64,000 nt of DNA from an uncultured Bacteroidia bacterium (GTDB lineage: Bacteria; Bacteroidota; Bacteroidia; Bacteroidales; UBA932), in contig CACWOH010000011.1 in the NCBI GenBank assembly GCA_902762435.1, forward strand, positions 62,001-126,000. Reading direction: 5' to 3'. A program made the translations under genes and the position numbers. Shown piece after piece: positions 11,836-62,762 of the stretch (positions within the stretch are counted from its first letter, which is position 1; every line of letters starts with the position of its first letter). The notes under the pieces were generated by a model. That model saw only the letters and a program-made list of their open reading frames with translations. It was not told where the DNA came from and ran no database searches.

Positions 11836-12816
11836 TTATTTCTTCTTCCGCAAGGACAGGTGCGCATAGGAGATCACGCCCAGCAGGATGATCAGGATGG
11901 CGTGCGCCTCGTGGCCCAGGGTGGCGAGCAGGATGCCCGTTTCCCAGCTGGCTCCGTACAGGCTCTGGATGGACAGGGCGACGAGGTAGTGGTAGGCGCC
12001 GATGCCGCCCGGGACGGGGATGACGGAGGCGATGTTGCCCACGGCGGACAGGAACACGGCGTCCACCGTGCCCAGCGCGTCCAGCTGGGGCAGCGCCCGG
12101 ATGGTGCAGAACATCATCGCGATGTACATCGCCCAGATGCCGACGGTGCTGAGCAGGAAGGGCCATTTGTTCTCCATCCGCGCCACGCTGGCGAAGCCGG
12201 TGCCGAGCCCCTTCAGGACGCCGGCGATGCGGCCGAGCAGGCGCACCCGCCTGCGCAGCAGGACCACGGCGGTGAAGAAGCCGACGAGCAGCACGCCGGT
12301 CAGGACGACGATCAGGACGGCCGATCCGCCCAGGCGAGCGTAGAACGGCCCCCAGATGTTGTCGGCGAAGAAGGGTGCGAAGGTGTTCCATTTGAGGGCC
12401 AGCGCCGCGATGAGGATGGCCGCCACGGCGAGTACGTCGAACACGCGTTCGCACATGATGGTGCCGAGCCCCTTGTCGAAGCTCATCCTGCGGGAAGAGA
12501 CATAGCCGCAGCGCACGAGTTCGCCGGCGCCGGGCAGCACCACGCTGATCAGGTTGCCCACGTTGAGGGCGTCCCAGACGGGCAGGCGCCGCACCTGGGG
12601 GTCCAGCGGCTTGATGAGCGCGTACCAGCGCTCCGTACGGAAGACGAGCGCCAGCACCGCGGCGGCGAAATACAGGGCGACCCAGCCCCATCTCGTCTGC
12701 TGCAGGCCCTCCCAGAAAGCTTTCCAGTCCACGCCCCGGAAGGCGAACCAGACGAGCACGACCGCCAGGATGGTGGTCAGGGTATATTTGGCAATATTTG
12801 CGGCTTTCTTCAACAT
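11836..12816 (-). CDS. Lysylphosphatidylglycerol synthase-like (UPF0104/AglD family) membrane protein
   Basis: A 326-aa polytopic membrane protein with about eight hydrophobic segments and the family features VLPGAGELVRCGYVSSR, ERVFDVLAVAAIL and VIPVPGGIGAYHYLVAL. The family includes the membrane half of MprF (aminoacyl-phospholipid flippase) and AglD; stand-alone forms are common in Bacteroidota and their substrate is not known. The frame can be extended to a TTG at 12825, but the ATG at 12816 lies 6 nt after a TAAATTTG box and is preferred. Divergent from the PfkB-type kinase gene. Confidence 0.85.
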   Translation of the reverse strand: MLKKAANIAKYTLTTILAVVLVWFAFRGVDWKAFWEGLQQTRWGWVALYFAAAVLALVFRTERWYALIKPLDPQVRRLPVWDALNVGNLISVVLPGAGELVRCGYVSSRRMSFDKGLGTIMCERVFDVLAVAAILIAALALKWNTFAPFFADNIWGPFYARLGGSAVLIVVLTGVLLVGFFTAVVLLRRRVRLLGRIAGVLKGLGTGFASVARMENKWPFLLSTVGIWAMYIAMMFCTIRALPQLDALGTVDAVFLSAVGNIASVIPVPGGIGAYHYLVALSIQSLYGASWETGILLATLGHEAHAILIILLGVISYAHLSLRKKK

Positions 12817-12822
12817 AGGGCG

Positions 12823-12830
12823 CAAATTTA
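12823..12830 (-). promoter_or_regulatory. Promoter -7 box (TAAATTTG), minus side of a divergent pair
   Basis: Exact box, 6 nt before the ATG at 12816. Its partner on the plus strand begins 22 bp away at 12845. Confidence 0.7.
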
Positions 12831-12844
12831 CGATTAATTATTGT

Positions 12845-12852
12845 TATTTTTG
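12845..12852 (+). promoter_or_regulatory. Promoter -7 box (TATTTTTG), plus side of a divergent pair
   Basis: Exact TAnnTTTG box, 6 nt before the ATG of the PfkB kinase at 12859; predicts a leaderless transcript. Confidence 0.7.
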
Positions 12853-12858
12853 TAAAAT

Positions 12859-13857
12859 ATGAAATCAATTCTCGGAATAGGCAATGCCCTGACGGACATC
12901 CTGGCCGTTTTGCCGGATGATTCCCTGCTGAACACCTTCCATTTGCCGAAAGGCAGCATGCAGCACGTCGACCACGAAACGGGCGACGGCATCTGGGCGG
13001 CCCTCAAGCCGCTGGGCGTGAAATACGTCGCCGGCGGCTCCGCGGCCAACACGATCACCTGCACGGCCATCTTCGGCATGCCGTCCGGCTTCATCGGCAA
13101 GATCGGCAACGACGAGCTCGGCCTGCTGTTCAAGAGCGACCAGGAGCAGTACGGCGTGCAGACGCGCCTGCTGACCAGCGAGCACGCCAGCGGCCGGTCG
13201 ATGGTGTTCGTCAGCGGCGGAAACGCCGAGCGCACCTTCGCCGTATACCTGGGCGCCGCGCTGGACCTGGTGCCGGACGACCTGCAGCCGGAGTGGTTCG
13301 ATGGCTACGACTATTTCCACATCGAGGGCTACCTGGTGCAGAACCAGGACCTGGTGCGTCGCGCCGTCGAGTACGCGCACCGCGCCGGGTGCATCATCTC
13401 GCTGGACATGGCCTCCTACAACGTCGTGGAGTCCAACCTGGCCTTCCTGCACGACATCGTGGAGAAGTACGTGGACATCGTCTTCGCGAACGAGACCGAG
13501 GCGCGGGCCTTCACCGGCCTGTCCGATCCGCAGGCATCGCTGGACGAGATTTCCAGACTCTGCCGGACTGCCATCGTGAAGGTGGGCAAGGACGGCAGCT
13601 GGGTCAAGCGCGGCGACGAGGTGCACTTCATCGAGCCCTGGCCCGCCGCCACGGTGGATGCCACCGGCGCCGGCGACACCTACGCCGCCGGCTTCCTCTA
13701 TGCGGACTCGCTGGGCCTGCCGCTCAAGACCTGCGGCGAGATCGGCTCCATCATCGCGGCCAAGGTGGTAGAGGTGGTGGGCACCAAGATCGACATCCCG
13801 CGCTGGCGGCTCGCCAAGCAGGAGATCCGGGACGTGATAGCCGCGACCGGCCGATGA
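12859..13857 (+). CDS. PfkB family carbohydrate/nucleoside kinase
   Basis: A 332-aa ribokinase-like sugar or nucleoside kinase. Family features are the N-terminal GIGNALTDILA, the substrate-side GGSAANTI (about 60-67) and the second PfkB signature DATGAGDTYAAGFLY (about 267-281) with the catalytic aspartate. The overall pattern (VDHETG, GGSAANT, FIGKIGNDELG) is close to the adenosine-kinase-like branch common in Bacteroidota, but the substrate cannot be fixed. It begins a run of three genes joined by ATGA overlaps at 13854 and 14333. Confidence 0.85.
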   Translation: MKSILGIGNALTDILAVLPDDSLLNTFHLPKGSMQHVDHETGDGIWAALKPLGVKYVAGGSAANTITCTAIFGMPSGFIGKIGNDELGLLFKSDQEQYGVQTRLLTSEHASGRSMVFVSGGNAERTFAVYLGAALDLVPDDLQPEWFDGYDYFHIEGYLVQNQDLVRRAVEYAHRAGCIISLDMASYNVVESNLAFLHDIVEKYVDIVFANETEARAFTGLSDPQASLDEISRLCRTAIVKVGKDGSWVKRGDEVHFIEPWPAATVDATGAGDTYAAGFLYADSLGLPLKTCGEIGSIIAAKVVEVVGTKIDIPRWRLAKQEIRDVIAATGR

Positions 13858-14806: not shown

Positions 14807-14824
14807 CTTGTAAGATCCTTTGAT

Positions 14825-16567: not shown

Positions 16568-16594
16568 ATTCCCGTCCCCAAAGCGGGCATTATA

Positions 16595-20027: not shown

Positions 20028-20888
20028 TTACAGGGAGCCGTAGAGCAGCAGGGCGACGCCTGCCATCATCAGCAGCATTTCCAGCGCCTTTTCCTTGACG
20101 TGGCCTTCCTTGAGGATCAGTGCGCCGCCGAGGAAGGTGATCAGCACCGAGCAACGGCGTACCATCGAAATGATGGAGAGCATGGCGTCCGGTTCCTTGA
20201 CCGCGAAGAAGTACAAGGCGTCGGCCACGGTGATCAGCACCGAGATCAGCAGGATGCGCCAGTCCCAGACAAAAGGCTGGAAGCGCTTCTTGTCCGTCAA
20301 ATATTGTACCAGCAGCAGGATGGCCAGGAGGATGGTGATATAGACGTTGGTCCAGCTCTGGACGAACATCGGGTCCAGGTTCAGTTGCTGGAGGATATGC
20401 TTGTCGTAGAGGGCGCTGGCGGAACCGGCCAGTACCGAGAGGATCATCAGGGAGATGCCCTTGGCGGAAGTCTTCCTGTCCGTTTCGTGGTGCTTGGAGC
20501 GGGAGCTGAGCAGCAGGGCCGTCATCACGACCGCCACGCCGAGCCACTGCAGCAGGTTGAGGCGCTCGCCGAAGAGGAGGATGGAGAAGATGAGCACGAA
20601 CATCGGCCGGGAGGCCTTGATGGTGCTCACGGTCGTGAGCGGGAGGCATTCCATCGCCTTGAGCCCGGACACCCAGGAGAGCGAGACCAGTACGGCCTTC
20701 AGCATCAGGCTCAGGTGGTCGGGCAGCGACCCCGTCCGGAGGAAGAGGAAAGGCGAGAGGTACAGCGCCGTGAGCCCCGTGGCGGTGACGAGGATCCAAT
20801 AGACCCCGTTTCGCTTCAGGGCCCGCTTCTTCGCGACATCGTAGGTGCCCAGCAGCAGGGCGGACAGGACAGTTAGCCAAAGCCACAT
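20028..20888 (-). CDS. EamA/DMT family transporter
   Basis: A 286-aa membrane protein with ten hydrophobic segments arranged as two EamA repeats, as in drug/metabolite transporters. Visible features are [20 protein letters not shown] and [17 protein letters not shown] in the first half and the corresponding [20 protein letters not shown] in the second. The substrate is unknown. It lies 18 bp upstream of the S41 gene in the same direction and is divergent from uvrA, with which it shares a compact promoter region. Confidence 0.85.
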
Positions 20889-20907: not shown

Positions 20908-20915
20908 CAAAGTTA
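20908..20915 (-). promoter_or_regulatory. Promoter -7 box (TAACTTTG), minus side of a divergent pair
   Basis: Exact TAnnTTTG box 19 nt before the EamA start; the plus-strand partner for uvrA begins 22 bp away. Confidence 0.6.
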
Positions 20916-20929: not shown

Positions 20930-20937
20930 TATTTTTG
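20930..20937 (+). promoter_or_regulatory. Promoter -7 box (TATTTTTG) of uvrA
   Basis: Exact box 11 nt before the ATG at 20949. A TTG in frame overlaps the box end and is rejected as start for that reason. Confidence 0.65.
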
Positions 20938-20948: not shown

Positions 20949-23657
20949 ATGAAAGAGAGCAAGATCGAAATACGCGGCGCCCGCGCCCATAATCTCAAGA
21001 ACGTGAACGTGGACATCCCGCGCAGGAAGTTCGTGGTCATCACCGGGATCAGCGGCAGCGGCAAGTCTTCGCTGGCCTTCGACACGCTCTACGCCGAGGG
21101 GCAGCGGCGCTACATGAACACGCTCTCCCCGTACGCCAAGCATTTCATGGGCATTCTCGAGAAACCGCAGGTGGAAAGCGTGGGCGGCCTGAGTCCGGTC
21201 ATCGCCATCGAGCAGAAGACCACCGGCAGCAACCCCCGCTCCACCGTCGGCACCATCACGGAGATCTCCGACTTCCTGCGCCTTCTGTACGCCCGCGCCT
21301 CCACGGCCTACTCGCCCGTGACGGGCAAGGAGATGGTGCGCTACACCGATGCACAGATCGTGGACCTCATCCTGGAGGAGTTCCGGGACCGCAAGTGCCT
21401 GCTGCTCGCCCCGCTGGTGCGCGGCCGCAAGGGGCACTACCGCGAACTGTTCGAGTCGCTGCGCAAGAAGGGTTTCCTGCAGGTGCGCATCGACGGGGAG
21501 ATCTGCGACCTCGGCCCCATCGAGGCGGTGGACCGCTACAAGGCCCACTTCATCGAGCTGGTGGTGGACAAGCTGAAACCCTCCGAGGGGGACCTCTCCC
21601 GCGTCCGCAGTTCCGTGGCCACCGCCCTGGGCATGGGCCGGGGGTCCATCGCGCTGCTGGACCAGCAGACCGGCGCCGTGCACCACTATTCCAAGCACCT
21701 GGTGGACCCGGAGAACGGCATCTCCCTGCAGGAACCCGCCCCGCATACCTTTTCCTTCAACTCCCCGGAAGGTTGCTGCCCGCACTGCAAGGGCCTCGGG
21801 ACCGTACCCGACGTCAGCCTGGACACCATCGTGCCGGACCCCGGCATATCCGTCGCGGACGGCGGCATCGCCCCGCTGGGACGCATCCGGGACGGGCGGA
21901 AGTTCGAGCTGGTCCGCGCCATCGCGCGCAAGCACAACTTCTCGCTGTACGAGCCCATCGCCGCCCTGCCGGACGAGGCCGTGACCCTGCTGGTGTTCGG
22001 CTCGGACGAGTTCTACCGCGTGGGCGAGGGCGCCCAGGCGGAGATGGTGAACTGGGACGGCGTCGTGGGCGACATCGAGGACAAGGTGGTCTGCCCCGTC
22101 TGCCACGGCACGCGCCTGGGCGAGCATGTGAAGTGCTTCCGCATCGACGGCAAGGACATCGCCCAGGTGAGCGCGATGGAGATTTCCGAACTTGCGGCGT
22201 GGCTGGACACCCTGCCGGAGAAACTGGACAAGCGGGCCGGCACCATCGCCCGGGACATCCTCAAGGAACTGACCGACCGCGTCCGCTTCCTGCTGGACGT
22301 GGGTCTGGACTACCTCAGCCTGGACCGGCCGACGGCCTCGCTGTCCGGCGGCGAGGGCCAGCGCATCCGCCTCGCCACGCAGATCGGCTCCAAGCTCGTG
22401 AACGTGATCTATATCCTCGACGAGCCGAGCATCGGCCTGCACCAGCGGGACAACCGCAAGCTGCTTGCCTCGCTGAAGAAGCTGCGCGACGAGGGCAACA
22501 CCGTGATCGTCGTGGAGCACGACGAGGAGACGATGCGGGCGGCCGACTGGATCGTGGACGTGGGCCCCGGTGCGGGCGAACTGGGCGGCCGCATCTGCTA
22601 CAGCGGTCCCCCCAGGCCGGTGGCGAACCCGATCGGCGTCCCGGCGGGCCGCCGCCAGGGCAACGGCCTCAGCCTGACGCTGCGCGGCGCCCGGGGCAAC
22701 AACCTCAAGGGCATCGACGCGGAGTTCCCGCTGGGCACCCTGATCGGGGTGAGCGGCGTGAGCGGCAGCGGCAAGTCCTCGCTCGTCAACGAGACCCTGA
22801 TGCCCATCCTCAAGGGGAAATTCTATCATTTCAAGGAACGTCCGCTGCCCTACGGATCCATCGAGGGCGTGGAGAACATAGACAAGGTCATCGAGGTGGA
22901 CCAGAGCCCGATCGGCCGCACCCCGCGCTCCAACCCGGCCACCTTTACGGGCGTGTTCGGCGACATCCGCGCCTTGTTCGAGGAGACGCCGGACGCCAAG
23001 GTGCGCGGCTTCAAGGCGGGCCGCTTCTCCTTCAACGTCCCCGGCGGGCGCTGCGAGGAGTGCAAGGGCGCCGGCATCAAGGTGATCGAGATGAACTTCC
23101 TGCCGTCCGTGGCCGTGTGCTGCGAGGCCTGCGGCGGGCGCCGCTACAAGGAGGACACCCTGGCGGTCCGGTACCGCGGCAAGAACATCAACGACGTGCT
23201 GGAGATGCCCGTTTCGGAGGCCTACGAGTTCTTCAAGTCCCATCCCAAGATCGCCCCGAAGCTGAAGGCGATGGTGGACGTGGGCCTGGGCTACGTGCAC
23301 CTCGGGCAGTCCGCCGTGACCCTGTCCGGCGGTGAGAGCCAGCGGATGAAACTGGCCGCGGAGCTGGCCCGCAAGGCCACCGGCAACACCCTCTATATGC
23401 TGGACGAGCCCACCACGGGCCTGCATTTCGACGATATCAAGGTGCTCCTGGGCGTACTCGACCGCCTGGTGGACCAGGGCAATACCGTCATCGTGATCGA
23501 ACACAACCTCGACGTGCTCAAGAGCGTCGATTATCTGATAGACATGGGTCCCGGCGGGGGCGCCGCAGGCGGCAGGATCGTTGCGACGGGCACCCCCGAG
23601 CAGGTCGCCGCCGACCCGGCGTCGGTCACCGGACCTTTTTTGAAGGAACTGTTATGA
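20949..23657 (+). CDS. uvrA: Excinuclease ABC subunit A
   Basis: A 902-aa UvrA, the damage-sensing ATPase of nucleotide excision repair. It has two ABC modules: Walker [10 protein letters not shown] near 33-41 and GVSGSGKSS near 605-615, two signature motifs ([12 protein letters not shown] and [12 protein letters not shown]), and zinc-finger cysteine pairs ([17 protein letters not shown] with CCEACGGRR). Length is slightly below the usual 940, mostly from loops. Bacteroidota often carry more than one UvrA, and I cannot decide from one sequence whether this is the main copy. The nucleoside kinase overlaps its stop by 4 bp (ATGA). Confidence 0.93.
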
Positions 23658-29293: not shown

Positions 29294-29301
29294 TACATTT
29301 G
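29294..29301 (+). promoter_or_regulatory. Promoter -7 box (TACATTTG) of pbpC
   Basis: Exact TAnnTTTG box 9 nt before the ATG of pbpC at 29311. The minus-strand box for the alpha-2-macroglobulin gene lies downstream at 29316-29323, so the two promoters face each other. Confidence 0.65.
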
Positions 29302-29310
29302 TTCAACCAA

Positions 29311-31623
29311 ATGTCCAAAGTTAAGAAAATTCTTTTAATATCTGTACCGGCCATCCTCTTTGTCTGGTTCCTTTTCTGCCTGCCGCGCCATCTTTTCCGC
29401 GCGCCGCTCAGCGCCACGGCCGTTTCCGCCGACGGAACGCTGCTGGGAGCGCGCATCTCCGCGGACGGGCAGTGGTGTTTTCCGCCTGCGGACCACGTGC
29501 CGGAAAAGTTCGCCAAATGCATCGTCGCCTTCGAGGACAAACGCTTCTGGCTGCACGGCGGCGTGGACCCCTTGTCCGCCGCCCGGGCGCTGGTGCAGAA
29601 CCTGCGGCGGGGCGGGGTGGTGAGCGGTGCCAGCACCCTGACGATGCAGGTCATCCGCCTGAGCCGTCCCGACAAGCCGCGCAGCCTGCCGGAGAAACTG
29701 TATGAGATGATGCTGGCCACGCGCCTGGAGTTCCGTTGCAGCAAGCGTAAAATCCTGCTCCTGTATGCATCCAACGCCCCTTTCGGGGGGAACGTGGTGG
29801 GCCTGGAAGCGGCCGCCTGGCGCTATTTCGGGCGGAGCGCGGACGACCTTTCCTGGGGCGAGAGCGCGATGCTCGCCGTGCTGCCGAACGCCCCGGGCCT
29901 GATCCATCCCGGCCGGGCGCGCGAACGCCTGCTGGAAAAGCGCAACGCGCTCCTGGACAAGCTCGCGCGCAAGGGCGTCATCGACGAGACGGAGTGCCTG
30001 CTGGCGAAGGACGAACCCCTGCCGGACCGGCCGCTGCCGATGCCCGACGCCGCCTACCATCTGCTGGAGCGCTGCCGGCTGGAACGGGGCGACGGCCCGT
30101 TCGAGACCACGGTGGACGCCGTTCTGCAGAACCGGGTGAACGCCATCGCGCGGCGCTATTTCGACACGTACCGGACCAACCTCGTGGACAATATGGGCAT
30201 CCTGGCCGTGGACGTGCATACGGGCGAGGTCCGGGCCTATTACGGCAACACCCGCGGCTGCGCCCCCCGGGTGCGCGGTGCCGACGTGGACATGATCCCG
30301 GCCGCGCGCTCCAGCGGCTCCACCCTGAAGCCCCTGTTGTACGCCTCGATGCTCCAGGCGGGGCAGATCCTGCCCACCTCGCTGGTCAAGGACACGCCTT
30401 ACAACCATAACAATTTCTCCCCGCACAACTACAGCCGCACCTTCGAGGGGGCGGTGCCCGCGCACGAGGTCATCGAGCGCTCGCTGAACGTCCCGTCCGT
30501 GCGGATGCTGGAAGACTTCGGCGCGGAGCGCTTCCTGGAGGTGCTGCGCGGGATGGGGTTCACGACCATCGACAAGGACGCGGACCACTACGGCCTGTCG
30601 CTGATCCTCGGCGGTGCCGAGATTACGCTGGAAACTCTGGCGCGCGCCTATTACTATCTGGCGGCGGAGCTCGCCGGAGATACTGTGTATGAAGAACTTG
30701 CGTATCTTTCCGATACGCGCCGCGACCGCCTGCCCGCCCGGAAGATTCCCATCGGCAAGGCGGCTGCCTACCTGACCTTCGAGGCCCTCTCGAACGCCAA
30801 CCGGCCGGAGGAGGAGGCATCCTGGATGGACTTCTCCACCGGACGGCGCATCGCCTGGAAGACGGGCACCTCCTGGGGCAACCGCGACGCCTGGTGCGTG
30901 GGCGTGAACCGCGACTGGGTGGTGGCGGTCTGGGTGGGCAACAGCGACGGCGAGGGCCGGGCCGGGATGACGGGCGTGTCGTACGCCGCCCCCGTGATGT
31001 TCGACGTGTTCTCCGCCCTGTCCGGCTCCGCCTGGTTCTCCCGGCCCACCGGGGAGATGACGCAGATCGAGGTCTGCCACGAGAGCGGCTTCCCCGCCGG
31101 CGACCTCTGCCCGCACCTGGACACCCTGTGGGTACCCGACGTGTCCGAGCAGCCGGACATGTGCCGCTACCACGTCCTGGTGCACCTGGACGCCACCGGG
31201 CGCTGGCAGGTGAACTCCAGCGTCTGCCCGCCGGAGGAGATGCGCGCGGAGGTGCGCTTCGTACTGCCGCCCGCGCAGGAGTGGTACTTTATGCAGAAGC
31301 ACCTGGACTACAAGCCGTTACCTCCCAAGCATCCGCTCTTCGACGTGGCTTCTTCCGGGGTGAATCCCATCGAGATCATCTATCCGCAGAACGGCATCAC
31401 GCTGGTGCTGACGCGCGCCCTGTCCGGGCAGCAGAACGGGGCGGTGTTCCGGGCGGCGCACGCCGACCCCTCCGCCACGCTCTACTGGCATATCGACGAC
31501 GAGTTCGTGGGGGAGACCACCGGCGACCACGAGCTGCGGGTGGACCCGGCCCCCGGACAGCACCGCCTGACGCTCATCGACGGCCAGGGGGCGCGGCGGG
31601 TGCATCTCTTTACCGTGAAGTAG
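29311..31623 (+). CDS. pbpC: Penicillin-binding protein 1C (transglycosylase/transpeptidase)
   Basis: A 770-aa bifunctional cell-wall synthase. After one N-terminal membrane helix (about 8-25) comes the GT51 transglycosylase domain with the catalytic glutamate in FEDKRFWLHGGVDP and GASTLTMQVIRL; the transpeptidase domain shows SSGSTLKPLLYA (SxxK), ERSLNVPSV (SxN) and WKTGTSWG (KTG). The C-terminal 90 residues form the PBP1C-specific BiPBP_C domain (SSGVNPIEIIYPQNG onward). ATG at 29311 is chosen because the promoter box lies just before it; the frame extends further upstream inside the divergent gene. Confidence 0.93.
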   Translation: MSKVKKILLISVPAILFVWFLFCLPRHLFRAPLSATAVSADGTLLGARISADGQWCFPPADHVPEKFAKCIVAFEDKRFWLHGGVDPLSAARALVQNLRRGGVVSGASTLTMQVIRLSRPDKPRSLPEKLYEMMLATRLEFRCSKRKILLLYASNAPFGGNVVGLEAAAWRYFGRSADDLSWGESAMLAVLPNAPGLIHPGRARERLLEKRNALLDKLARKGVIDETECLLAKDEPLPDRPLPMPDAAYHLLERCRLERGDGPFETTVDAVLQNRVNAIARRYFDTYRTNLVDNMGILAVDVHTGEVRAYYGNTRGCAPRVRGADVDMIPAARSSGSTLKPLLYASMLQAGQILPTSLVKDTPYNHNNFSPHNYSRTFEGAVPAHEVIERSLNVPSVRMLEDFGAERFLEVLRGMGFTTIDKDADHYGLSLILGGAEITLETLARAYYYLAAELAGDTVYEELAYLSDTRRDRLPARKIPIGKAAAYLTFEALSNANRPEEEASWMDFSTGRRIAWKTGTSWGNRDAWCVGVNRDWVVAVWVGNSDGEGRAGMTGVSYAAPVMFDVFSALSGSAWFSRPTGEMTQIEVCHESGFPAGDLCPHLDTLWVPDVSEQPDMCRYHVLVHLDATGRWQVNSSVCPPEEMRAEVRFVLPPAQEWYFMQKHLDYKPLPPKHPLFDVASSGVNPIEIIYPQNGITLVLTRALSGQQNGAVFRAAHADPSATLYWHIDDEFVGETTGDHELRVDPAPGQHRLTLIDGQGARRVHLFTVK
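29316..29323 (-). promoter_or_regulatory. Promoter -7 box (TAACTTTG) of the alpha-2-macroglobulin gene
   Basis: Exact box on the minus strand, inside the first codons of pbpC and 33 nt before its own ATG. Confidence 0.55.
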
Positions 31624-33077: not shown

Positions 33078-33085
33078 CAAATTTA
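33078..33085 (-). promoter_or_regulatory. Promoter -7 box (TAAATTTG), minus side of a divergent pair
   Basis: Exact box 22 nt before the MBL hydrolase ATG; the plus-strand partner begins 20 bp away. Confidence 0.65.
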
Positions 33086-33097: not shown

Positions 33098-33105
33098 TAA
33101 ATTTG
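33098..33105 (+). promoter_or_regulatory. Promoter -7 box (TAAATTTG) of the first deoxynucleoside kinase
   Basis: Exact box 22 nt before the ATG at 33128; the second kinase gene has the same box at the same distance. Confidence 0.65.
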
Positions 33106-38069: not shown

Positions 38070-38077
38070 CGAAGATA
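38070..38077 (-). promoter_or_regulatory. Promoter -7-like box (TATCTTCG), minus side of a divergent pair
   Basis: One mismatch to TAnnTTTG; 4 nt before the ATG at 38065. The plus-strand partner begins 20 bp away. Confidence 0.55.
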
Positions 38078-38089: not shown

Positions 38090-38097
38090 TAAATTTG
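38090..38097 (+). promoter_or_regulatory. Promoter -7 box (TAAATTTG) of the YigZ gene
   Basis: Exact box 8 nt before the ATG at 38106. Confidence 0.65.
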
Positions 38098-48380: not shown

Positions 48381-49526
48381 ATGAAAGTTCTGATCATAGA
48401 CGACGAGCGGGCGATCCGCAATTCGCTGGGGGAGATCCTCGGCGACGAAGGCTACGAAGTCGATACCGCCGAAGACGGGCTCGTGGCGCTCCAGAAGGTT
48501 GAAAAGGAGAAATACGACGTCATCTTCTGCGACATCAAGATGCCCGGGATGGACGGCACCGAGGTGCTCGCGAAATTCATGGAAATGGGCCTGGACGCCG
48601 CCGTGGTGATGATTTCCGGCCACGCCGACATCAAGACCGCCGTGGACTGCATCAAGCTGGGCGCCTTCGACTTCATCGAGAAGCCGCTGGACCTGAACCG
48701 CATCCTGATCACGATCAAGAACGCCGGGGACCGGGTGGTGCTGACCGCCCAGAACAAGGCGCTCAAGAAGAAGGTGTACGGCGCCGACATGGTGGGAGAT
48801 TCCGCCCCGATGCAGCACGTCCGCGAGATGATCGCGAAGGTGGCGCCCACCGACGCCCGCGTGCTGGTCATCGGCCCCAACGGTTCCGGCAAGGAACTCG
48901 TGGCGCGCAACCTCCACCAGCTCAGCCCCCGCAGCGCGATGCCTTTCGTGGAGGTGAACTGCGCCGCCATTCCCGGCGAACTCATCGAAAGCGAACTGTT
49001 CGGACACGAGAAGGGCTCCTTCACCTCGGCCATCAAGCAGCACAAGGGCAAGTTCGAGCAAGCGGACGGCGGCACCCTCTTCCTGGACGAGATCGGCGAT
49101 ATGAGCCTGGCCGCCCAGGCAAAGGTCCTGCGCGTGCTGCAGGAGAAGAAACTTTCCCGCGTGGGTTCCGACAAGGACATCGAGGTGGACGTCCGCGTGG
49201 TCGCCGCCACCAACAAGGACCTGGCGAAGGAGATCGAGAAGGGGACCTTCCGCGAGGACCTCTACCACCGCCTGAGCGTGATCGTGATCCCCGTCCCCTC
49301 GCTGGACGAGCGGCGCGACGACATCCCGCAGCTGATCGAGTTCTTCAAGGCGAAGTACACCGACGGCGGCAAGCCCCGCAGCTTCTCGCCGGAGGCGGTG
49401 GAACTGCTGAAACAGAAGCACTGGCCGGGCAACATCCGCGAACTGGACAACGTCGTGGACCGGCTCCTCATCCTCGGGGACGAGCCCGTCAGCGCGGAGA
49501 ACGTCCGCTCGTACGTGAATCTTTAG
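48381..49526 (+). CDS. NtrC-type response regulator without DNA-binding domain
   Basis: A 381-aa protein with a receiver domain (1-120; Asp7/Asp8, phospho-acceptor Asp51, Lys101) and a central AAA+ sigma-54 activator domain (about 135-375; Walker A GPNGSGKE at 165-172, Walker B GGTLFLDEIGDM). The loop that contacts sigma-54, GAFTGA in active members, reads GSFTSA here (212-217), and the protein stops at NVRSYVNL without the usual Fis-type helix-turn-helix. Bacteroidota homologues share this form. It may act from solution, on other AAA+ partners, or not on sigma-54 at all. It starts 14 bp after metG and overlaps the convergent gene by 4 bp. Confidence 0.88.
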   Translation: MKVLIIDDERAIRNSLGEILGDEGYEVDTAEDGLVALQKVEKEKYDVIFCDIKMPGMDGTEVLAKFMEMGLDAAVVMISGHADIKTAVDCIKLGAFDFIEKPLDLNRILITIKNAGDRVVLTAQNKALKKKVYGADMVGDSAPMQHVREMIAKVAPTDARVLVIGPNGSGKELVARNLHQLSPRSAMPFVEVNCAAIPGELIESELFGHEKGSFTSAIKQHKGKFEQADGGTLFLDEIGDMSLAAQAKVLRVLQEKKLSRVGSDKDIEVDVRVVAATNKDLAKEIEKGTFREDLYHRLSVIVIPVPSLDERRDDIPQLIEFFKAKYTDGGKPRSFSPEAVELLKQKHWPGNIRELDNVVDRLLILGDEPVSAENVRSYVNL

Positions 49527-50299
49527 TCCCGCACCACCACGGCGCCGCGGCGCCCGATACGCCGGATTTCGTCCTCGGAGAAGCGGGCGTCATCCGGCGT
49601 CCTGTACCGGCGTTTCTCGAAGAGGAGCAGCTCGTGCGTGTCCGCGGAAATCAGCATCTTGTAGCAGAAGCGGTCCCCGCCGCCGTCCGCCGGCGCCACG
49701 CACAGGGCGGCCACGGCGTCTTTCCGCTGCGCGAGGACGGCCGCGTCCGCCGCGTCGGGGTCGAGCAGGACCGTCTTCCCGCGCAGGCTGGCGCCATCCA
49801 GGGCCGGCAGTCCGGCGTAGGCCGTCCGGTCGGAAATCATCGCCTGCTCCACGAAGTTCTGGATGATGTCCAGGAACGCGCCCATCAGCACGAGTTCCCG
49901 TCCGCCGGGATCGTCCGCGCCGGCGATGGGTATCCGGACCACCTCGAAAGCCTGCTTGAGCTGGTCCTTTTCGCCTTCCTTCCCGCCTTTGGACAGGATC
50001 AGGAACAGGATGCCGCGGTCCTGCGCCAGCGTGAGGAAGTAATAGGAAGAGGAGAAAGCCAGGCGCCCGTATTCTTCCGGGGTGCAGAATTCATAGGGCG
50101 AGATGCGCCAGTGGACGGCGACGGCCTCGCGCAGCGTGAGCTCCAGGAAGGGGTTGCCTCCGAGGACCACCTTGGTGGTGCGGGCGGGGAAGTCCGCCAG
50201 CCGCAGCTTGCGCGTATAGACCTTGCCCTGGCCCGGGGCCGGCAGCGCGGCGAACAGCAGGAAAAGGGTCAGAAAAAGATGGCGCAAACGGAACTTCAT
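49523..50299 (-). CDS. Exported protein of unknown function
   Basis: A 258-aa protein with a signal peptide (MKFRLRHLFLTLFLLFAALP, cleavage about 23). The mature part is mixed alpha/beta with no recognised domain; notable stretches are TTKVVLGGNPFLELTLREAV, WRISPYEFCTPEEYG and a tail of arginine-rich residues (RRIGRRGAVVVRD). It is divergent from dnaX and shares a compact promoter region with it. ATG at 50299 is chosen because it lies 5 nt after a TAAATTTG box and opens with the signal peptide. I recall similar proteins only from Bacteroidales. Confidence 0.65.
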   Translation of the reverse strand: MKFRLRHLFLTLFLLFAALPAPGQGKVYTRKLRLADFPARTTKVVLGGNPFLELTLREAVAVHWRISPYEFCTPEEYGRLAFSSSYYFLTLAQDRGILFLILSKGGKEGEKDQLKQAFEVVRIPIAGADDPGGRELVLMGAFLDIIQNFVEQAMISDRTAYAGLPALDGASLRGKTVLLDPDAADAAVLAQRKDAVAALCVAPADGGGDRFCYKMLISADTHELLLFEKRRYRTPDDARFSEDEIRRIGRRGAVVVRD

Positions 50300-50304: not shown

Positions 50305-50312
50305 CAAATTTA
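50305..50312 (-). promoter_or_regulatory. Promoter -7 box (TAAATTTG), minus side of the dnaX divergent pair
   Basis: Exact box 5 nt before the ATG at 50299; its plus-strand partner begins 20 bp away. Confidence 0.7.
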
Positions 50313-50324: not shown

Positions 50325-50332
50325 TACATTTG
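50325..50332 (+). promoter_or_regulatory. Promoter -7 box (TACATTTG) of dnaX
   Basis: Exact TAnnTTTG box with 6 nt to the dnaX ATG at 50339, predicting a leaderless transcript. Confidence 0.7.
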
Positions 50333-50338
50333 TAAACT

Positions 50339-52126
50339 ATGTCAGACTACGTCGTATCAGCCCGCAAATACCGTCCGGACTCCTTCGAGTCGCTGATCGG
50401 ACAGGACAACATCGCACGGACCCTCAAGAACTCGATCCAGCGCGGCCAGCTCGCGCACGCCTACCTGTTCTGCGGACCCCGGGGCGTCGGCAAGACCAGC
50501 GCCGCGCGCATCTTCGCCAAGACCATCAACTGCGCCCATCCGGGTCCGGACCTGGAGCCGTGCGGCGAGTGCGACTCCTGCCGTTCCTTCGCCGAGGGGC
50601 GCTCGTACTGCATCCACGAACTGGATGCGGCGTCCAACAACGGCGTGGACGACATCAAGACCCTGATGGACCAGGTGCAGATTCCGCCGCAGGTGGGCCG
50701 CTACTCGGTGTTCATCATCGATGAGGTGCACATGCTCTCGCAGTCGGCTTTCAACGCCTTCCTGAAGACGCTGGAGGAGCCGCCCGCACACGCCATCTTC
50801 ATCCTCGCCACCACGGAGAAGCACAAGATCCTGCCCACCATCCTGAGCCGCTGCCAGACCTACGATTTCAATCGCATCGGCGTGCCCGACATCGTGCGCA
50901 ACCTGCGGGACATCGCGGGCAAGGAGGGCGTGAACGTGGACGACGAGTCGCTGCACGTGATCGCGCACAAGGCGGACGGCGCGATGCGCGACGCCCTCAC
51001 GCTCTTCGACCAGACGGTCGCCTTCTGCGGCACGGACGTCCGTTACGAGGACGTGATCCGCAACCTGGGCGTGCTGGATTACGAATACAGTTTCCGCCTG
51101 GTGGAGGCGTTCCTCGCCGGCGATTATGCCGCGGCGCTGCTCATCTTTGACGAGATCCTCTCGAAGGGTTTCAACGCGCAGCATTTCATCGCGGCGCTGA
51201 GCGCGCACCTGCGCGACCTGCTGGTGAGCCGTACCGGCGGCCTGGAGGCGCTGCTGGACCTGCCGGATTCCCTGCGGGCCCGCTACAAGGACCAGGGGGA
51301 CCGCTGCAGCGTGAAGTGGCTGTACGACGCCCTGGGCATTACCACCGCCTGCGAGGCCGGCTACCGCCTCTCGACGAACCCCCGCCTCCATATCGAATTC
51401 GCCCTGATGAAGCTCGCCTTCCTGCAGAACCAGCCCTCCGCCCAGCCTGCGGTCGCTCCGGCAGCCAAACCGGCGCAGCAGGAGGCAGTTGGCCGCTCCG
51501 CGGAGCCTGCCCCGTCGGTGTCCGATGGTGGAGTGCTGCCCCCGGAAACCGTGACCGCCGGACCTGCTGCCGAGCAACCGAAGACCGCTGAGCCTGCCGA
51601 GCCCGCGGCAGTACCTGCTACAGAGCAACAGAAACCGGCACCGAGGAAGCGCAAGACCGGCGCGTCGCTGTCGCTGGCGGCGCTGCTCAGCGACGACGAA
51701 CCCGAAATCATGCCGGCGGCCACCCCCGACCCCGCGGCGGCTCCGCAGGCCCTCCCTTCGGACGAAGAGATCGCGGCCAGATGGAAAGACCTGGCGGCCC
51801 AGTACGGCGGCGTCCAGCCCCGCCTGGCCAACGCCCTGGCCAACGCCACGCTCCAGTGCCGTGAAGAAGACGGCCGCAAGGTGATCGGCTTCTCGGTGAC
51901 GAACGAAGCCCAGAAGAAATGGATCGAAGAGCGGATCCTCCGCGACCTGGAAGACCGGTTCGCGAAACTGACCGGCTGCGGACGCATCCGCCTCGAGCCG
52001 TCCGTGGTCGCGGAAGAAGAGCAGGGGCCCCGCATCTACATGCCCACGGAAAAGGCCGCCGACCTGATGAGCAAGAACGAGGAGGTCCGCAAGCTCGTCG
52101 TGGACCTCGCCCTGGACATCAAATAA
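50339..52126 (+). CDS. dnaX: DNA polymerase III subunit gamma/tau
   Basis: A 595-aa clamp-loader ATPase. The AAA+ part shows [20 protein letters not shown] (Walker A), the zinc module [37 protein letters not shown] (Walker B) and [18 protein letters not shown] proline- and alanine-rich linker (about 375-470) leads to a C-terminal domain (about 475-595) that in tau contacts the polymerase. No A-AAA-AAG type slippery site was noticed, so a separate gamma form from frameshifting is not predicted. Confidence 0.94.
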
Positions 52127-52909: not shown

Positions 52910-52920
<11 letters not shown>

Positions 52921-54535
52921 GCACGCTGCGCGCGGGACGGTCGGGATCGTTCTCCACGCGGCACACGTCATTCAGGATCATCACCTCTCCGTTTTCCGGC
53001 GTGTACTTCGGCCACGCCGGCAGGGCGTCGCAGTTGGGATCGCCGGTGCGCATGAAGGCCAGCAGCGCGTCGGACATCTTGTCGGAAAGCGCGCGCGGCC
53101 TGGCACCGCCGCCGGTATGGGTGAGCATCACGTCGGTGTTGTGCAGCCAGAAGCAGATGTCCAGGCAGTGGAAGGCGCGCATGCGGCCGTCGAACAGGGG
53201 CGGCTGCCACTGGAACCAGGCCACATAGACCGGGGCGCCCTGCGCGTACTTGGTGTCCGCCGAGCGGACCACGTTCGTGCGGGTGGACAGGAGCATGGAC
53301 CAGATTTCGATCGGCCGCCGGTCCGGGAACTGCCGGGCATAGGCTTCCACGATCTCGCGCGTACGCTCGCCGTAGCGGGAGGAGAGCTGCTCCACCACGC
53401 CGTCCAGGGTGATGTCTTCCAGATCCGGCCGGGTGCGGTTGGGGTTGTTCTCGTTGAGGGTGGTGCAGTACAGGATCGGGATGTTGGGCAGGGACGCGTC
53501 GGCCGGGTCGAAGAAGGTGCCGGCCGGGATGTCCACGCCGTCGCCCACCGGGCTGAAGCCGGCGCGGCCGCCGGCGGGCGTTCCGCGGAAACTGCGGGCG
53601 GCCCGGTTGGCCAGCGCATAGTATTCTTCCCAGGGCATCTGCTGGAGCCGGTCGATCTGCGAGGGCTTCAGGCCCGCCTCCTTGAGGATATGGGCGCCGA
53701 GCGCTTCCGCGTAGGCCTTGTCCGTGGCGTTGACGGCGTTGCCGCTGAGGGCGACGCCCTTGTGGACGAGCCCCTTGGCGGCCGGCATCGTGGCGATGAC
53801 GCTGACTTTGCCGCCACCGCCGGACTGGCCGATGATGGTCACGTTGCCCGGGTCGCCGCCGAAATTGGCGATGTTGTCGTGCACCCATTGCAGGGCGGCG
53901 ATGATGTCGAGCATGCCGACGTTGCCGGAGTGGAGGTATTTCTCCCCGCCGACAGAAGCGAAATCGCTGAACCCGAACGAGTTGAGCCGGTGGTTGACGG
54001 AGCAGCAGACCACATTGCCGTAGCGGGCGAGGTTCTCGCCGCCGTAGCCGTCCTGCTCGATGGCGTTGCCGCTGGAGTAGCCGCCGCCGTGCAGCCAGAC
54101 GAGCACGGGCCGCTTCTCGCCGTCCAGGCCGGGCGTCCAGACGTTGAGGCGGAGGCAGTTTTCGCCGATGAGGTCGTAGTTCCAGTGGTCCGTGAAACCG
54201 CCGTAGGATTCGGGCCGGCGGTCATAGGCGACCACCTGCGGGGCGGACTCGCCGAACATGAGCGCCGGACGCACGTCGTCCCAGCTCTGGGGCGGCTGGG
54301 GCGGCATGAAGCGGTTCTCGCCGGCGGTGCTGGCGCCGTAGGGGATGCCGCGGAACTGGTAGATGTCGTCGAGGATGAAGCCGCGCACGCGGCCATACTG
54401 CGTGTTGGCGACGGCGATGTCTTCGCCGATGAACAGCCGCTGTCCGTCCGGGTCCTTGGCGGACTTGCCGGACGGGCCCGCGCAGGCGCACAGCAGGGCC
54501 GCTGCCGCCAGCAGGAGGAAAAGATTCTTTTTCAT
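52910..54535 (-). CDS. Type B carboxylesterase, lipoprotein
   Basis: A 541-aa alpha/beta hydrolase of the carboxylesterase/cholinesterase family with a lipoprotein signal (lipobox LLCAC, Cys at about 17). Family features: [20 protein letters not shown] near the start, the oxyanion-hole [11 protein letters not shown], and the nucleophile elbow [11 protein letters not shown] with the catalytic serine. In Bacteroidales such enzymes remove acetyl or feruloyl groups from plant polymers or act on small esters. The frame extends to an ATG at 54559, but the lipoprotein signal starts at 54535. Divergent from cmk. Confidence 0.88.
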
Positions 54536-54560
54536 ATGGGTTTGAACGTGGGTTTCCATA

Positions 54561-54568
54561 CAAATTTA
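54561..54568 (-). promoter_or_regulatory. Promoter -7 box (TAAATTTG), minus side of the cmk divergent pair
   Basis: Exact box 25 nt before the esterase ATG; the plus-strand partner begins 21 bp away. Confidence 0.65.
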
Positions 54569-54581: not shown

Positions 54582-54589
54582 TATATTTG
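54582..54589 (+). promoter_or_regulatory. Promoter -7 box (TATATTTG) of cmk
   Basis: Exact TAnnTTTG box 31 nt before the cmk ATG. Confidence 0.65.
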
Positions 54590-54620: not shown

Positions 54621-55322
54621 ATGCGCATTCCTGATATCACCATAGCCATCGACGGCTATTCCTCCACGGGCAAGAGCACGCTTGCCAAACTGATCGCCAC
54701 GCATTTCGATTTCCTGTACCTCGATTCCGGCGCGATGTACCGCGGCGTCACCCTCTTCGCCCAGGAGCAGGGCCTGATCTCCCCGGACAACGTGATCGAT
54801 CCGGCGCTGGAGGCGGCCCTGGAAGGGCTCGACCTGCATTTCGCGCCGGGCACCGTCCTGTATATGGGCGACCGCAGCATCGAGAAGGAGATCCGCACCA
54901 TGGAAGTCTCCTCGCAGGTGAGCCCCATCGCTGCCGTGCCCTACGTGCGCAGCTGGGTGGATGCGCGCCTGCACGCCTTTTCCGAGGCGGGCCGCGTGGT
55001 GATGGACGGCCGCGACATCGGAACCACCGTCTTCCCGGATGCGGAGATCAAGATCTTCATGACCGCCCGTCCGGAGGTGCGCGCCCAGCGCCGCTTCGAC
55101 GAACTCGTCTCCAAGGGCGAGAATCCGGTGTTCGAGGAGGTGATGAAGAACCTGCAGGAGCGCGATTACATCGACTCCCACCGGGAGACCTCCCCGCTGC
55201 GCCGGGCGGAAGACGCCTTCGAACTGAACAATTCCGAGATGGGCCTCACCGAGGAGATTGCCTGGGCGGAGGGCCTCATCCGCGGGAAATTCGGCCTGCT
55301 GAACGCCCCGGAGGAGCTGTGA
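54621..55322 (+). CDS. cmk: Cytidylate kinase
   Basis: A 233-aa (d)CMP kinase: P-loop IDGYSSTGKSTLAK (about 10-23; the third position carries Tyr-Ser-Ser rather than the usual GPAGSGKS, a form seen in Bacteroidota), FLYLDSGAMYRGVTL for CMP binding, VVMDGRDIGTTVFPDAEIKI and RDYIDSHRETSPLRRAEDAF. It phosphorylates CMP and dCMP for nucleic-acid synthesis. ispH overlaps its stop by one base (TGATG), a gene order (cmk-ispH) common in many bacteria. Confidence 0.93.
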   Translation: MRIPDITIAIDGYSSTGKSTLAKLIATHFDFLYLDSGAMYRGVTLFAQEQGLISPDNVIDPALEAALEGLDLHFAPGTVLYMGDRSIEKEIRTMEVSSQVSPIAAVPYVRSWVDARLHAFSEAGRVVMDGRDIGTTVFPDAEIKIFMTARPEVRAQRRFDELVSKGENPVFEEVMKNLQERDYIDSHRETSPLRRAEDAFELNNSEMGLTEEIAWAEGLIRGKFGLLNAPEEL

Positions 55323-60862: not shown

Positions 60863-61779
60863 AGAAAACCACCGTCACCCGCACTTCGCTGCCTCCGTTC
60901 GAGGAGTTCTGCGCGCAGATCCGTCCGCTCTGGGACAGCCGCATCCTGACCAACATGGGCACGCAGCACGAGGCGTTCCGGGCCGCCCTGGAGCAGTACC
61001 TGGAAGTTCCGCACGCCGTGCCCTTCACCAACGGCCACCTGGCGCTGGAAGCCGCCCTGCGCGCGCTGCGCCTGCCGGCCGGGGCAGAAGTCGTCACCAC
61101 GCCCTTCACCTTCGTATCCACGGTGCACGCCATCGTGCGCTGCGGCTTCGTGCCGGTGTTCTGCGACGTCCGGGAAGAGGACGGTACCCTGGACCCGGCG
61201 CTGTCGGAGTCCTTGCTGACGGAACGCACGGCGGCGGTCCTGCCCGTGCACGTGTACGGCAATGTCTGCGACGTGGAGCGCATCGGGGCTTTCGCCGCCC
61301 GGAACGGCCTGAAGGTCCTCTACGACGCGGCGCACGCGTTCGGCGTGCGGCTGCACGGGGAAAGCGTGGCACGCTTCGGCGACGCCTCTGTGTTCAGTTT
61401 CCACGCCACGAAGGTCTTTTCCACCGTCGAGGGCGGGGCGGTGTGCACGGCCGACAGGACCCTGCTGCAGGCGTTGGAAGACGAGAAGAACTTCGGCATC
61501 CGGGATGAGGAGCACTGCGCCGCCGTGGGCGGGACGCAGGCGCTGCGCGACGCCGTCTTCGCGCGCCTGGCCGCCGCGGACATCCTCGCCCGCAAGTATT
61601 TCTATCCGCTGGTGCCGGACCTGGAATGCTATGCCGGCACGCCCTTCGCGGCTGCGGCCCGCGTGCCGGTGGCCCGGAGCCTTGCCGCCCGGGTACTGTG
61701 CCTGCCCCTCTACGCCGGCCTGCAGGCCGACGAGGTGGACCGTATCTGTGACATCGTGCTTACAGCTGCTCGATCTTGA
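60859..61779 (+). CDS. DegT/DnrJ/EryC1-type aminotransferase, internally shortened
   Basis: A 306-aa PLP-dependent sugar aminotransferase-like protein; the family is normally about 360-380 aa. PLP-binding parts are present: TNGHLALEAAL, TPFTFVSTVHA, LYDAAHAFG (Asp156) and SFHATKVFSTVEGGAV with the Schiff-base Lys185. After KNFGI (211-215), where members continue with an NGKMNEFQAA-type helix, the sequence jumps through about 15 unusual residues to DILARKYFYPL, a late motif. Some 50-70 residues are missing, including part of the dimer and substrate site. Amino-sugar formation (VioA/FdtB-like) is the family role; activity here is doubtful. Confidence 0.75.
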   Translation: MKKTTVTRTSLPPFEEFCAQIRPLWDSRILTNMGTQHEAFRAALEQYLEVPHAVPFTNGHLALEAALRALRLPAGAEVVTTPFTFVSTVHAIVRCGFVPVFCDVREEDGTLDPALSESLLTERTAAVLPVHVYGNVCDVERIGAFAARNGLKVLYDAAHAFGVRLHGESVARFGDASVFSFHATKVFSTVEGGAVCTADRTLLQALEDEKNFGIRDEEHCAAVGGTQALRDAVFARLAAADILARKYFYPLVPDLECYAGTPFAAAARVPVARSLAARVLCLPLYAGLQADEVDRICDIVLTAARS

Positions 61780-62239
61780 GCTGCTGGATCTTGAAAGATT
61801 TGCCCTTGGCGCTCACGAAGATGGTCACGGAGAAGTTTTCTCCGCCGGCCTTGAGCGTGCCGAGGGCATATTTCATGTTATCACGCCCGGCGGTGTGGTT
61901 GATGGTGAAGGAGCGGGGCGTGTAGTTCTCGAAGAAAGACTTGACGATCTGGCGGGCCTGGGCCTTGGACGCGTTGCTCGCCTGCGAGATGACGGCGATC
62001 TCGAGGGTGTCGTCGAACCAGGCGGAGAGGTTGTCGGCATTACCCTGCGCCATATACTTGCTGATGGGGATGAATACGTCGAACCCGCCCGGCTGCGGCG
62101 CTTCGCGCGGGGCGGCCTGGAGGTTCATCGCAGGCTTGGACTGGGGCGGACGGCCGAAGCCGCCGGCGGGCTGGGCCGCCAGCCGCCCGCAGGTAAGCAG
62201 GGAAAGCAGAATGATCGCTATTTCCAGGATTCGTCGCAC
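61760..62239 (-). CDS. DUF4783-like (NTF2-fold) secreted protein
   Basis: A 159-aa protein with a signal peptide (about 1-22, ending RLAAQ), a proline/glutamine-rich linker (AGGFGRPPQSKPAM) and a roughly 105-residue NTF2-like domain: DVFIPISKYMAQGNADNLSA, WFDDTLEIAVI, SKAQARQIVKSFFENY and IFVSAKGKSFKIQQLKIEQL. This matches Bacteroidota DUF4783 proteins of unknown function. The likely start is a GTG at 62239. It overlaps the convergent DegT-like gene by 20 bp and is divergent from rlmH. Confidence 0.75.
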   Translation of the reverse strand: MRRILEIAIILLSLLTCGRLAAQPAGGFGRPPQSKPAMNLQAAPREAPQPGGFDVFIPISKYMAQGNADNLSAWFDDTLEIAVISQASNASKAQARQIVKSFFENYTPRSFTINHTAGRDNMKYALGTLKAGGENFSVTIFVSAKGKSFKIQQLKIEQL

Positions 62240-62273
62240 AGCGTAAAACTTTGCAAAATCCGAGCCACGTTAT

Positions 62274-62281
62274 TATCTTTG
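62274..62281 (+). promoter_or_regulatory. Promoter -7 box (TATCTTTG) of rlmH
   Basis: Exact TAnnTTTG box 7 nt before the ATG at 62289. A weaker minus-strand box (GGATTTTG, 62261-62254) lies 20 bp away on the DUF4783 side. Confidence 0.65.
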
Positions 62282-62288
62282 TAATAGG

Positions 62289-62762
62289 ATGCATATCACG
62301 CTGCTCACAGTCGGAAAGACGGATATCCCCTGGGTTCGGGCGGGGCTGGAAACCTATGTTTCCCGCCTGGAGCATTACGTGCCGTTCTCGCTGAAGGAGA
62401 TTCCGGAACTCAAGGGCGTCTCCGCGCTGGGCCGCGAGCAGATCAAGGCCCGCGAAGGCGAACTGATCCTGCGGCAGCTCCGGCCCGCCGACGAGGTGGT
62501 GCTGCTGGACGAGCACGGGAAGGAGTTCCGTTCGCTGGAGCTTGCGGACTGGCTGGGGCGGCGCCTGAACGCATCCGTGCGCGACCTCGTGTTCGTGGTC
62601 GGCGGCGCCTATGGTTTCTCCGACGCGGTGTATGCGCGGGCGGATGGGAAACTGTCGCTGTCGAAGATGACCTTTTCGCACCAGCTTGTGAGAACGATTT
62701 TTGCAGAGCAGCTATACCGGGCCTTCACCATCCTGCGCGGTGAGCCCTACCATCACGAATGA
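62289..62762 (+). CDS. rlmH: 23S rRNA pseudouridine-1915 N3-methyltransferase RlmH
   Basis: A 157-aa SPOUT-fold methyltransferase that modifies pseudouridine 1915 in helix 69 of 23S rRNA. Markers are MHITLLTVGKTDIPWV at the start, LLDEHGKEFRSLELADWL, the AdoMet-knot VFVVGGAYGFSDAVYARADG and the C-terminal FSHQLVRTIFAEQLYRAFTI followed by LRGEPYHHE. Length is exactly typical. It overlaps the next gene by 4 bp (ATGA). Confidence 0.96.
   Translation: MHITLLTVGKTDIPWVRAGLETYVSRLEHYVPFSLKEIPELKGVSALGREQIKAREGELILRQLRPADEVVLLDEHGKEFRSLELADWLGRRLNASVRDLVFVVGGAYGFSDAVYARADGKLSLSKMTFSHQLVRTIFAEQLYRAFTILRGEPYHHE

What the first reader, a model, noticed from the sequence alone, without database searches (positions are those of the whole stretch)
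12816..62291. Back-to-back TAnnTTTG boxes with constant 20-22 bp spacing at divergent gene pairs
At six of the nine divergent gene pairs the two promoter boxes point apart with start-to-start distances of 22 (12823/12845), 22 (20908/20930), 20 (33078/33098), 20 (38070/38090), 20 (50305/50325) and 21 bp (54561/54582). A seventh pair (62254/62274) fits at 20 bp with a weak minus-strand box. Spacing equals about two helical turns and places the -33 region of each promoter on the -7 box of the other. This predicts symmetric bidirectional promoters where one sigma site pair serves both genes. Bidirectional promoters with overlapping elements are known in E. coli; I know of no description for the Bacteroidota consensus. 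The exceptions are the AraC/TonB pair, whose 66-bp gap carries operators, and the pbpC pair, whose boxes face inward.
Basis: partly seen in the sequence, partly recalled or inferred. Interest (0 to 1): 0.72.

Follow-up and report, generated by a model that had tools for sequence, protein, structure and literature searches.

The report
Interlocked back-to-back promoters, helically spaced
In this gut-type bacterium and many members of its order, neighbouring genes read in opposite directions often share one very short stretch of DNA in which their two start signals sit about two, three or four turns of the DNA helix apart, apparently because each start signal fills an A/T-rich slot that the other one uses.

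Summary
Genome-wide there are 36 perfect pairs at 20-22 bp and 1 at 24-26; the reversed control motif gives 0 in both. Box-to-start-codon distances vary widely while box-to-box spacing does not: 20 of 45 nearest pairs lie at 20-22, against 1.2 expected when leaders are permuted.

The pattern is wider than reported. Over 149 genomes of the order, spacings form a ladder (20-22, 29-31, 39-41 bp) with troughs at 24-26 and 34-36 and a shallow one at 44-46.

My reading: two separate SigABfr-type promoters with interlocked upstream DNA. Lone promoters here carry A/T tracts phased about 10 bp apart upstream of the box, and their base composition alone predicts the first two peaks and troughs for a partner box. 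So each -7 box sits in an A/T slot of the other promoter; the -33 TTG is mostly absent from these pairs rather than shared. Mutually exclusive occupancy is inferred. No start site was mapped.

The parts
12823..12830 (-). -7 box of the gene at 11836-12816 (lysylphosphatidylglycerol synthase TM family), 6 nt before its ATG
12845..12852 (+). -7 box of the gene at 12859-13857 (PfkB family kinase), 6 nt before its ATG; d = 22
20908..20915 (-). -7 box of the gene at 20028-20888 (EamA-family transporter)
20930..20937 (+). -7 box of the gene at 20949-23657 (UvrA-like); d = 22
33078..33085 (-). -7 box of the gene at 32354-33055 (metallo-beta-lactamase superfamily fold)
33098..33105 (+). -7 box of the gene at 33128-33742 (deoxynucleoside kinase); d = 20
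38070..38077 (-). -7 box with one mismatch, of the gene at 37502-38065 (no Pfam match)
38090..38097 (+). -7 box of the gene at 38106-38702 (UPF0029); d = 20
50305..50312 (-). -7 box of the gene at 49523-50299 (no Pfam match), 5 nt before its ATG
50325..50332 (+). -7 box of dnaX (50339-52126), 6 nt before its ATG; d = 20
54561..54568 (-). -7 box of the gene at 52910-54559 (carboxylesterase family); only 1 nt from the called ATG, so that start is doubtful
54582..54589 (+). -7 box of the gene at 54621-55322 (cytidylate kinase); d = 21

Best explanation
These are pairs of ordinary SigABfr-type (TAnnTTTG) promoters that point apart and have interlocked upstream halves. Shown: a promoter of this organism carries, besides its -7 box, A/T tracts about 10 bp apart upstream of the box (box-relative -8..-4, -18..-14, about -28..-22; that is near -18, -28 and -37 if the start lies 4 nt after the box). 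Shown: a partner box sits where such a tract would be, at 20-22 bp, 29-31 bp or 39-41 bp. Inferred: at 20-22 bp the two boxes and one central tract form a 28-30 bp, nearly palindromic platform on which RNA polymerase can dock in either direction, each box serving as the -28 A/T element of the other in place of a -33 TTG. Start sites would be 37-41 bp apart, so two polymerases could not sit there at once and the two genes would compete. Compact genomes favour this because a whole divergent control region can shrink to about 40 bp.
For: Spacing is box to box: SD 1.0 bp while leaders have SD 27 and 23 bp, permutation mean 1.2 and maximum 7 of 20,000 trials against 20 observed. Ladder in 149 genomes: forward/control 1216/593 (20-22), 718/569 (24-26), 1226/568 (29-31), 817/563 (34-36), 1299/638 (39-41), 1054/543 (44-46). 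Pairs with one mismatch repeat the first rungs: 15, 1, 13, 6, 11, 7 for 19-22, 23-27, 28-31, 32-37, 38-42, 43-47. Phased A/T tracts at 49 tandem promoters, 48 of them without any partner, and in 460 boxes of relatives. Base composition of 48 partnerless tandem promoters predicts relative partner density 1.85, 0.44, 2.73, 0.59 in the first four windows. The dnaX locus shows d of 19-21 in 19 of 35 loci, with 30, 40 and 41 in three others. AT-rich motifs at -18 and -28, one helical turn apart, are published for F. johnsoniae (PMC6847099, passages).
Against: No start sites are mapped. The composition model gives 0.96 and 1.02 for 39-41 and 44-46, so it does not predict the third rung, and it predicts more pairs at 29-31 than at 20-22, the reverse of the own genome (36 versus 13). 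Periodicity over all relatives' spacings beyond 25 bp is not significant (43 pairs, p 0.42), and over 16-66 bp its best period was 8.3, not 10. A/T phasing is weaker in relatives. One dnaX locus has d = 33, off the ladder.
Confidence: 0.65

Rival explanations
1. Helix-face selection: the two polymerases (or the DNA twist between the promoters) must meet on the same face of the helix so that they exclude or couple to each other; the A/T tracts are a side effect.
For: The spacing steps of about 9-10 bp put both box centres on nearly the same face. Overlap of the two binding regions follows from the geometry.
Against: Promoters without a partner already carry the phased tracts, and these predict the first peaks and troughs without any coupling between promoters.
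Confidence: 0.15
2. General A/T periodicity of intergenic DNA (curvature, nucleoid proteins) makes any two A/T-rich words fall in phase; promoters play no part in it.
For: Periodic A-tracts are known from many prokaryotic genomes (PMC3940949, abstract start in the listing). A weak signal also lies at -80..-45 in relatives (p 0.012).
Against: In the own genome the phasing is confined to the promoter (p 0.48 at -80..-45). Tandem box pairs of relatives show no phase (44 pairs, p 1.0). The reversed motif shows almost no pattern in the order totals (563-638 over the six windows of one call set).
Confidence: 0.12
3. The palindrome is an operator for one global regulator or nucleoid protein, not two promoters.
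For: Inverted symmetry with a preferred spacing is typical of sites for dimeric regulators (general knowledge).
Against: The half site is the published housekeeping -7 consensus (PMC6847099, PMC7366714; passages) and occurs alone upstream of tandem genes (61 genes). Spacing takes several values, and the window pairs lie at unrelated genes.
Confidence: 0.05
4. Compactness alone: gaps are short and each box sits at a set distance from its start codon, so the box spacing is a by-product.
For: Divergent gaps are short (median 78 bp) and box-to-start distances cluster at 4-8 and 19-28 nt.
Against: Leader permutation destroys the spacing (mean 1.2 against 20). Pairs at 20-22 occur with very different leaders (for example 6/6, 22/22, 50/5).
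Confidence: 0.03

Closest known systems
Bidirectional promoters of E. coli (PMC12825309: abstract, introduction and passages seen; the 2021 Warman paper only as cited there)
   Same: Near-symmetric DNA driving divergent transcription, with expected exclusion between the two polymerases.
   Different: There a shared -10 element serves both directions and starts lie 18, 10 or 23 bp apart; here two separate -7 boxes lie 20-22 bp apart with predicted starts 37-41 bp apart. That paper sets separate divergent promoters aside.
SigABfr promoters of Flavobacterium johnsoniae (PMC6847099, passages)
   Same: Same TAnnTTTG box 4-5 nt before the start, AT-rich motifs at -18 and -28 one helical turn apart, weak or absent -33 motif.
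   Different: The passages found describe single promoters; the term 'divergent' occurs once there, for a cloning construct. Interlocking of two promoters is not mentioned in them.
Bacteroides thetaiotaomicron promoter map (PMC7366714, passages)
   Same: Same order by general knowledge; a SigABfr-like promoter at 81% of primary start sites.
   Different: The passages found do not treat spacing between divergent promoters ('bidirectional' does not occur). Leaders under 10 nt are about 3.7% there.

Membership tests
SigABfr-type housekeeping promoter of Bacteroidota | TAnnTTTG -7 box upstream of genes | tested here: met
   Perfect boxes in the five window pairs; 86 of 93 divergent gaps in 864 kb have one on at least one side (49 both, 37 one)
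SigABfr-type housekeeping promoter of Bacteroidota | -33 TTG/TTTG element | tested here: inconclusive
   TTG at box-relative -23 in 17 of 61 tandem and 13 of 79 other divergent promoters, but 2 of 41 with a partner at 18-23 bp
SigABfr-type housekeeping promoter of Bacteroidota | AT-rich motifs one helical turn apart upstream of the box (about -18, -28) | tested here: met
   49 tandem promoters, not reached in 1000 row shifts over -45..-3
SigABfr-type housekeeping promoter of Bacteroidota | Transcription starts 4-5 nt after the box | not testable with these tools
   No transcript data for this organism; distance taken from PMC6847099
Bidirectional promoter in the sense of PMC12825309 | One shared -10 element serves both directions | tested here: not met
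   Two separate boxes, start-to-start 20-22 bp; no outward pair closer than 12 bp in 464 kb
Bidirectional promoter in the sense of PMC12825309 | Divergent start sites 10, 18 or 23 bp apart | not testable with these tools
   Predicted 37-41 bp here from geometry; not mapped
Bidirectional promoter in the sense of PMC12825309 | Polymerases exclude each other | not testable with these tools
   Inferred from overlapping binding regions only

The most novel reading that the evidence does not exclude
In the order Bacteroidales, divergent promoters are built on a common ladder of A/T rungs one helical turn apart. The -7 box is itself a rung and can be read from either side; two, three or four turns give spacings of about 20, 30 and 40 bp. 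In the two-turn form the orientation of polymerase is a competitive choice, so these pairs are built-in either/or switches, and the partner's -7 box takes over from the -33 element as upstream recognition or bending element for the SigABfr polymerase.
Probability: 0.3. Interest if true: 0.75.

Novelty: new variant of a known kind. Interest (0 to 1): 0.6.

Why it matters
It would give a role to the unexplained AT-rich motifs at -18 and -28 of Bacteroidota promoters, suggest why the -33 element is so hard to see, and predict competition between neighbouring genes across a major order of gut bacteria. It also offers a pattern for compact two-way promoters in Bacteroides work. The spacing ladder can be checked at once against existing start-site maps.

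Tried and rejected
Longer-range helical phasing: own pairs at 39-66 bp gave p 0.026 but with a best period of 12; relatives plus own gave p 0.36; relatives over 16-66 bp gave p 0.002 with a best period of 8.3. So I claim discrete peaks only to about 42 bp.

Phylum-wide generality: at 20-22 bp, 48 genomes of the same class outside the order had 258 forward and 222 control matches (summed), so I limit the claim to the order. The remaining 149 of the 198 genomes were not summed. One distant genome with 22 versus 2 (G139) had 151 versus 48 over a wider range of gaps and only part of its matches is listed; not used.

A first logo mixed tandem and divergent promoters by a slip in the script and was redone. 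A first gene caller made shadow-frame errors and was replaced. The class 'div_nopartner' (57 promoters) still holds 10 with a perfect partner at another spacing, so I rely on the tandem class. The A/T test in relatives used eight of the ten sampled genomes (G021 and G294 left out) and no gene calls.

In the order counts, G022 has 47 matches at 34-36, probably a repeat; it stays in the totals and works against the troughs. In the own-genome histogram two nested duplicate pairs were left out (d 61 and 49) and d 27-38 was only partly listed.

Novelty: that this ladder is not described rests on searches in an open-licence library, judged by titles and abstract starts apart from the papers named as seen in passages. 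The 2021 Warman paper was not among the ten of 23 rows listed and was seen only as cited. PMC10268837 was seen in listings only.
Full report
WHAT WAS CHECKED. The window is contig 11, bases 62001-126000, of a 2.30-Mb genome in 46 contigs, 63.6% G+C. Named relatives found with its dnaX protein are mostly uncultured Bacteroidales genomes, many from rumen. Five pairs are perfect, none in 100 shuffles. The 38070 pair has one mismatch and the 62254 pair two.

GENOME-WIDE. The perfect outward pair with an 8-18 bp gap occurs 46 times, the reversed motif never. Start-to-start distances, typed into, are 17:1, 18:2, 19:6, 20:13, 21:14, 22:9, 25:1. I took 40 stretches (800 kb) from ten contigs, plus the window, and called genes with a dicodon model of my own. 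Of 93 divergent gaps, 49 have a perfect box on both sides, 37 on one, 7 on none; of 45 nearest pairs, 20 are at 20-22 bp. Allowing one mismatch in a pair, 36 of 93 gaps have a pair at 19-22 (21 perfect, 15 with one mismatch).

SPACING IS BETWEEN BOXES, NOT BETWEEN START CODONS. In the 22 pairs with d 17-24 the spacing has SD 1.0 bp, the two leaders SD 27 and 23 bp. Permuting the leaders over the gaps gives a mean of 1.2 and a maximum of 7 pairs at 20-22 in 20,000 trials, against 20. In the first 464 kb, outward perfect pairs within 120 bp numbered 35, inward 2, tandem 5.

A LADDER, NOT ONE DISTANCE. I counted six 3-bp windows in 149 genomes of the order. Own genome: 36 (20-22), 1 (24-26), 13 (29-31), 0 (34-36), 13 (39-41), 3 (44-46), controls 0. 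All 149 genomes, forward/control: 1216/593, 718/569, 1226/568, 817/563, 1299/638, 1054/543. Over the 146 genomes outside the own family: 20-22 exceeds 24-26 in 104 and is below in 29 (sign test p 4e-11); 29-31 over 24-26 in 102 versus 30 (2e-10); 29-31 over 34-36 in 99 versus 34 (1.5e-8); 39-41 over 34-36 in 105 versus 30 (6e-11); 39-41 over 44-46 only in 81 versus 53 (0.02); 20-22 over 44-46 is not significant (76 versus 53, 0.05). Genomes are related, so these p-values are optimistic. Pairs with one mismatch in the own gaps, a separate set, give 15, 1, 13, 6, 11, 7 for 19-22, 23-27, 28-31, 32-37, 38-42, 43-47. Against: in stretches of ten relatives, spacings beyond 25 bp show no significant period (43 pairs, p 0.42), and beyond about 45 bp none is secure. 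All 18 other genomes labelled same genus have 48-116 pairs with a 10-40 bp gap, controls 0-12.

ONE LOCUS ACROSS SPECIES. I read the DNA upstream of dnaX in 35 of the 80 loci. Perfect pairs with d 12-45 occur in 23 of 35: 19 at 19-21, one at 30 (the same locus also has one at 22), one at 33 (off the ladder), one at 40, one at 41; three of the 19 also show a pair at 12. Some loci are near-identical, so these are not 23 independent events, and the neighbouring gene was not checked in each.

WHY THESE DISTANCES. Forty-nine tandem promoters of the own genome (one with an outward partner) have A/T tracts at box-relative -8..-4, -18..-14 and about -28..-22, with G+C-richer steps between. The 9.5-11 bp periodicity over -45..-3 is not reached in 1000 row shifts; over -45..-12 p is 0.004; over -80..-45 it is absent (p 0.48). 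In 460 boxes of relatives it is weaker but present (0 of 500 over -45..-3 and over -45..-12), with a small remainder further upstream (p 0.012). A partner box at d = 20, 30 or 40 puts its A/T core near -16, -26 and -36. From the base frequencies of 48 tandem promoters with no perfect partner, the expected relative density of CAAAnnTA is 1.85, 0.44, 2.73, 0.59, 0.96, 1.02 for the six windows. This predicts the first two peaks and troughs from promoters that have no partner. It does not predict that 20-22 is commonest in the own genome, nor the 39-41 peak. F. [quoted passage not shown] with the start 4 nt after the box these are the first two tracts here.

THE -33 ELEMENT. TTG at box-relative -23 is found in 17 of 61 tandem promoters, 13 of 79 other divergent promoters and 2 of 41 promoters with a partner at 18-23 (30/140 versus 2/41, Fisher p 0.018). 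The partner box lies there instead.

MECHANISM, AND WHAT IS INFERRED. Shown: anatomy, spacing statistics, phased tracts. Inferred: start sites 37-41 bp apart, one polymerase at a time, competition between genes, the partner box acting as an upstream A/T element. E. [quoted passage not shown]

COMPARISON. In E. coli the shared -10 gives start sites 18, 10 or 23 bp apart, and separate divergent promoters are set aside (PMC12825309, introduction). The present arrangement fails that definition but may work like it. I found no description in searches; only open-licence papers are held. Outside the order the excess is small (48 genomes of the class, 258 versus 222 at 20-22).

LIMITS. One genome, probably uncultivated, with gene calls of my own; stretches were taken from contigs already known to carry hits, though the whole-genome counts do not depend on this; no transcript data; tandem and inward pairs were not counted over the 149 genomes.

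Noticed in passing
window 12859, 50339, 62289 and 864 kb of the own genome: Many boxes sit 3-8 nt before the start codon: 48 of 181 genes with a perfect box, which with a start 4-5 nt after the box means no leader or one of up to 4 nt. Published figures are lower: about 3.7% of leaders under 10 nt in B. thetaiotaomicron, 5.5% leaderless in F. psychrophilum, 1 of 37 Bacteroidetes/Chlorobi genomes with leaderless genes (PMC3160421, passages). Prediction from sequence only.
   Followed up: partly
window 50325-50339 and dnaX loci L074-L108: In 16 of 35 dnaX loci a listed pair has its box exactly 6 nt before the ATG, so a nearly leaderless dnaX transcript looks conserved.
   Followed up: partly
window 8023-8060: Two copies of TGGACTTTTCAGTCAA with a 22-bp period (8023-8038, 8045-8060) between an AraC/ExsA-type regulator gene and a TonB-dependent receptor gene: a candidate operator (sequence, genes).
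   Followed up: no
window 29294-29323: Inward-facing boxes at the pbpC gene: plus box 29294-29301, minus box 29316-29323; the minus-strand promoter would lie inside the start of pbpC (ATG at 29311), start-to-start 22 bp.
   Followed up: no
own genome C5:73552 and C6:5208: The two outward pairs at 12 bp in 864 kb lie between convergent genes, so they are not divergent promoters.
   Followed up: no
genome G022: 47 pairs at 34-36 bp against 8, 5, 9, 7 and 8 in the five other windows, perhaps a dispersed repeat with outward TAnnTTTG ends.
   Followed up: no
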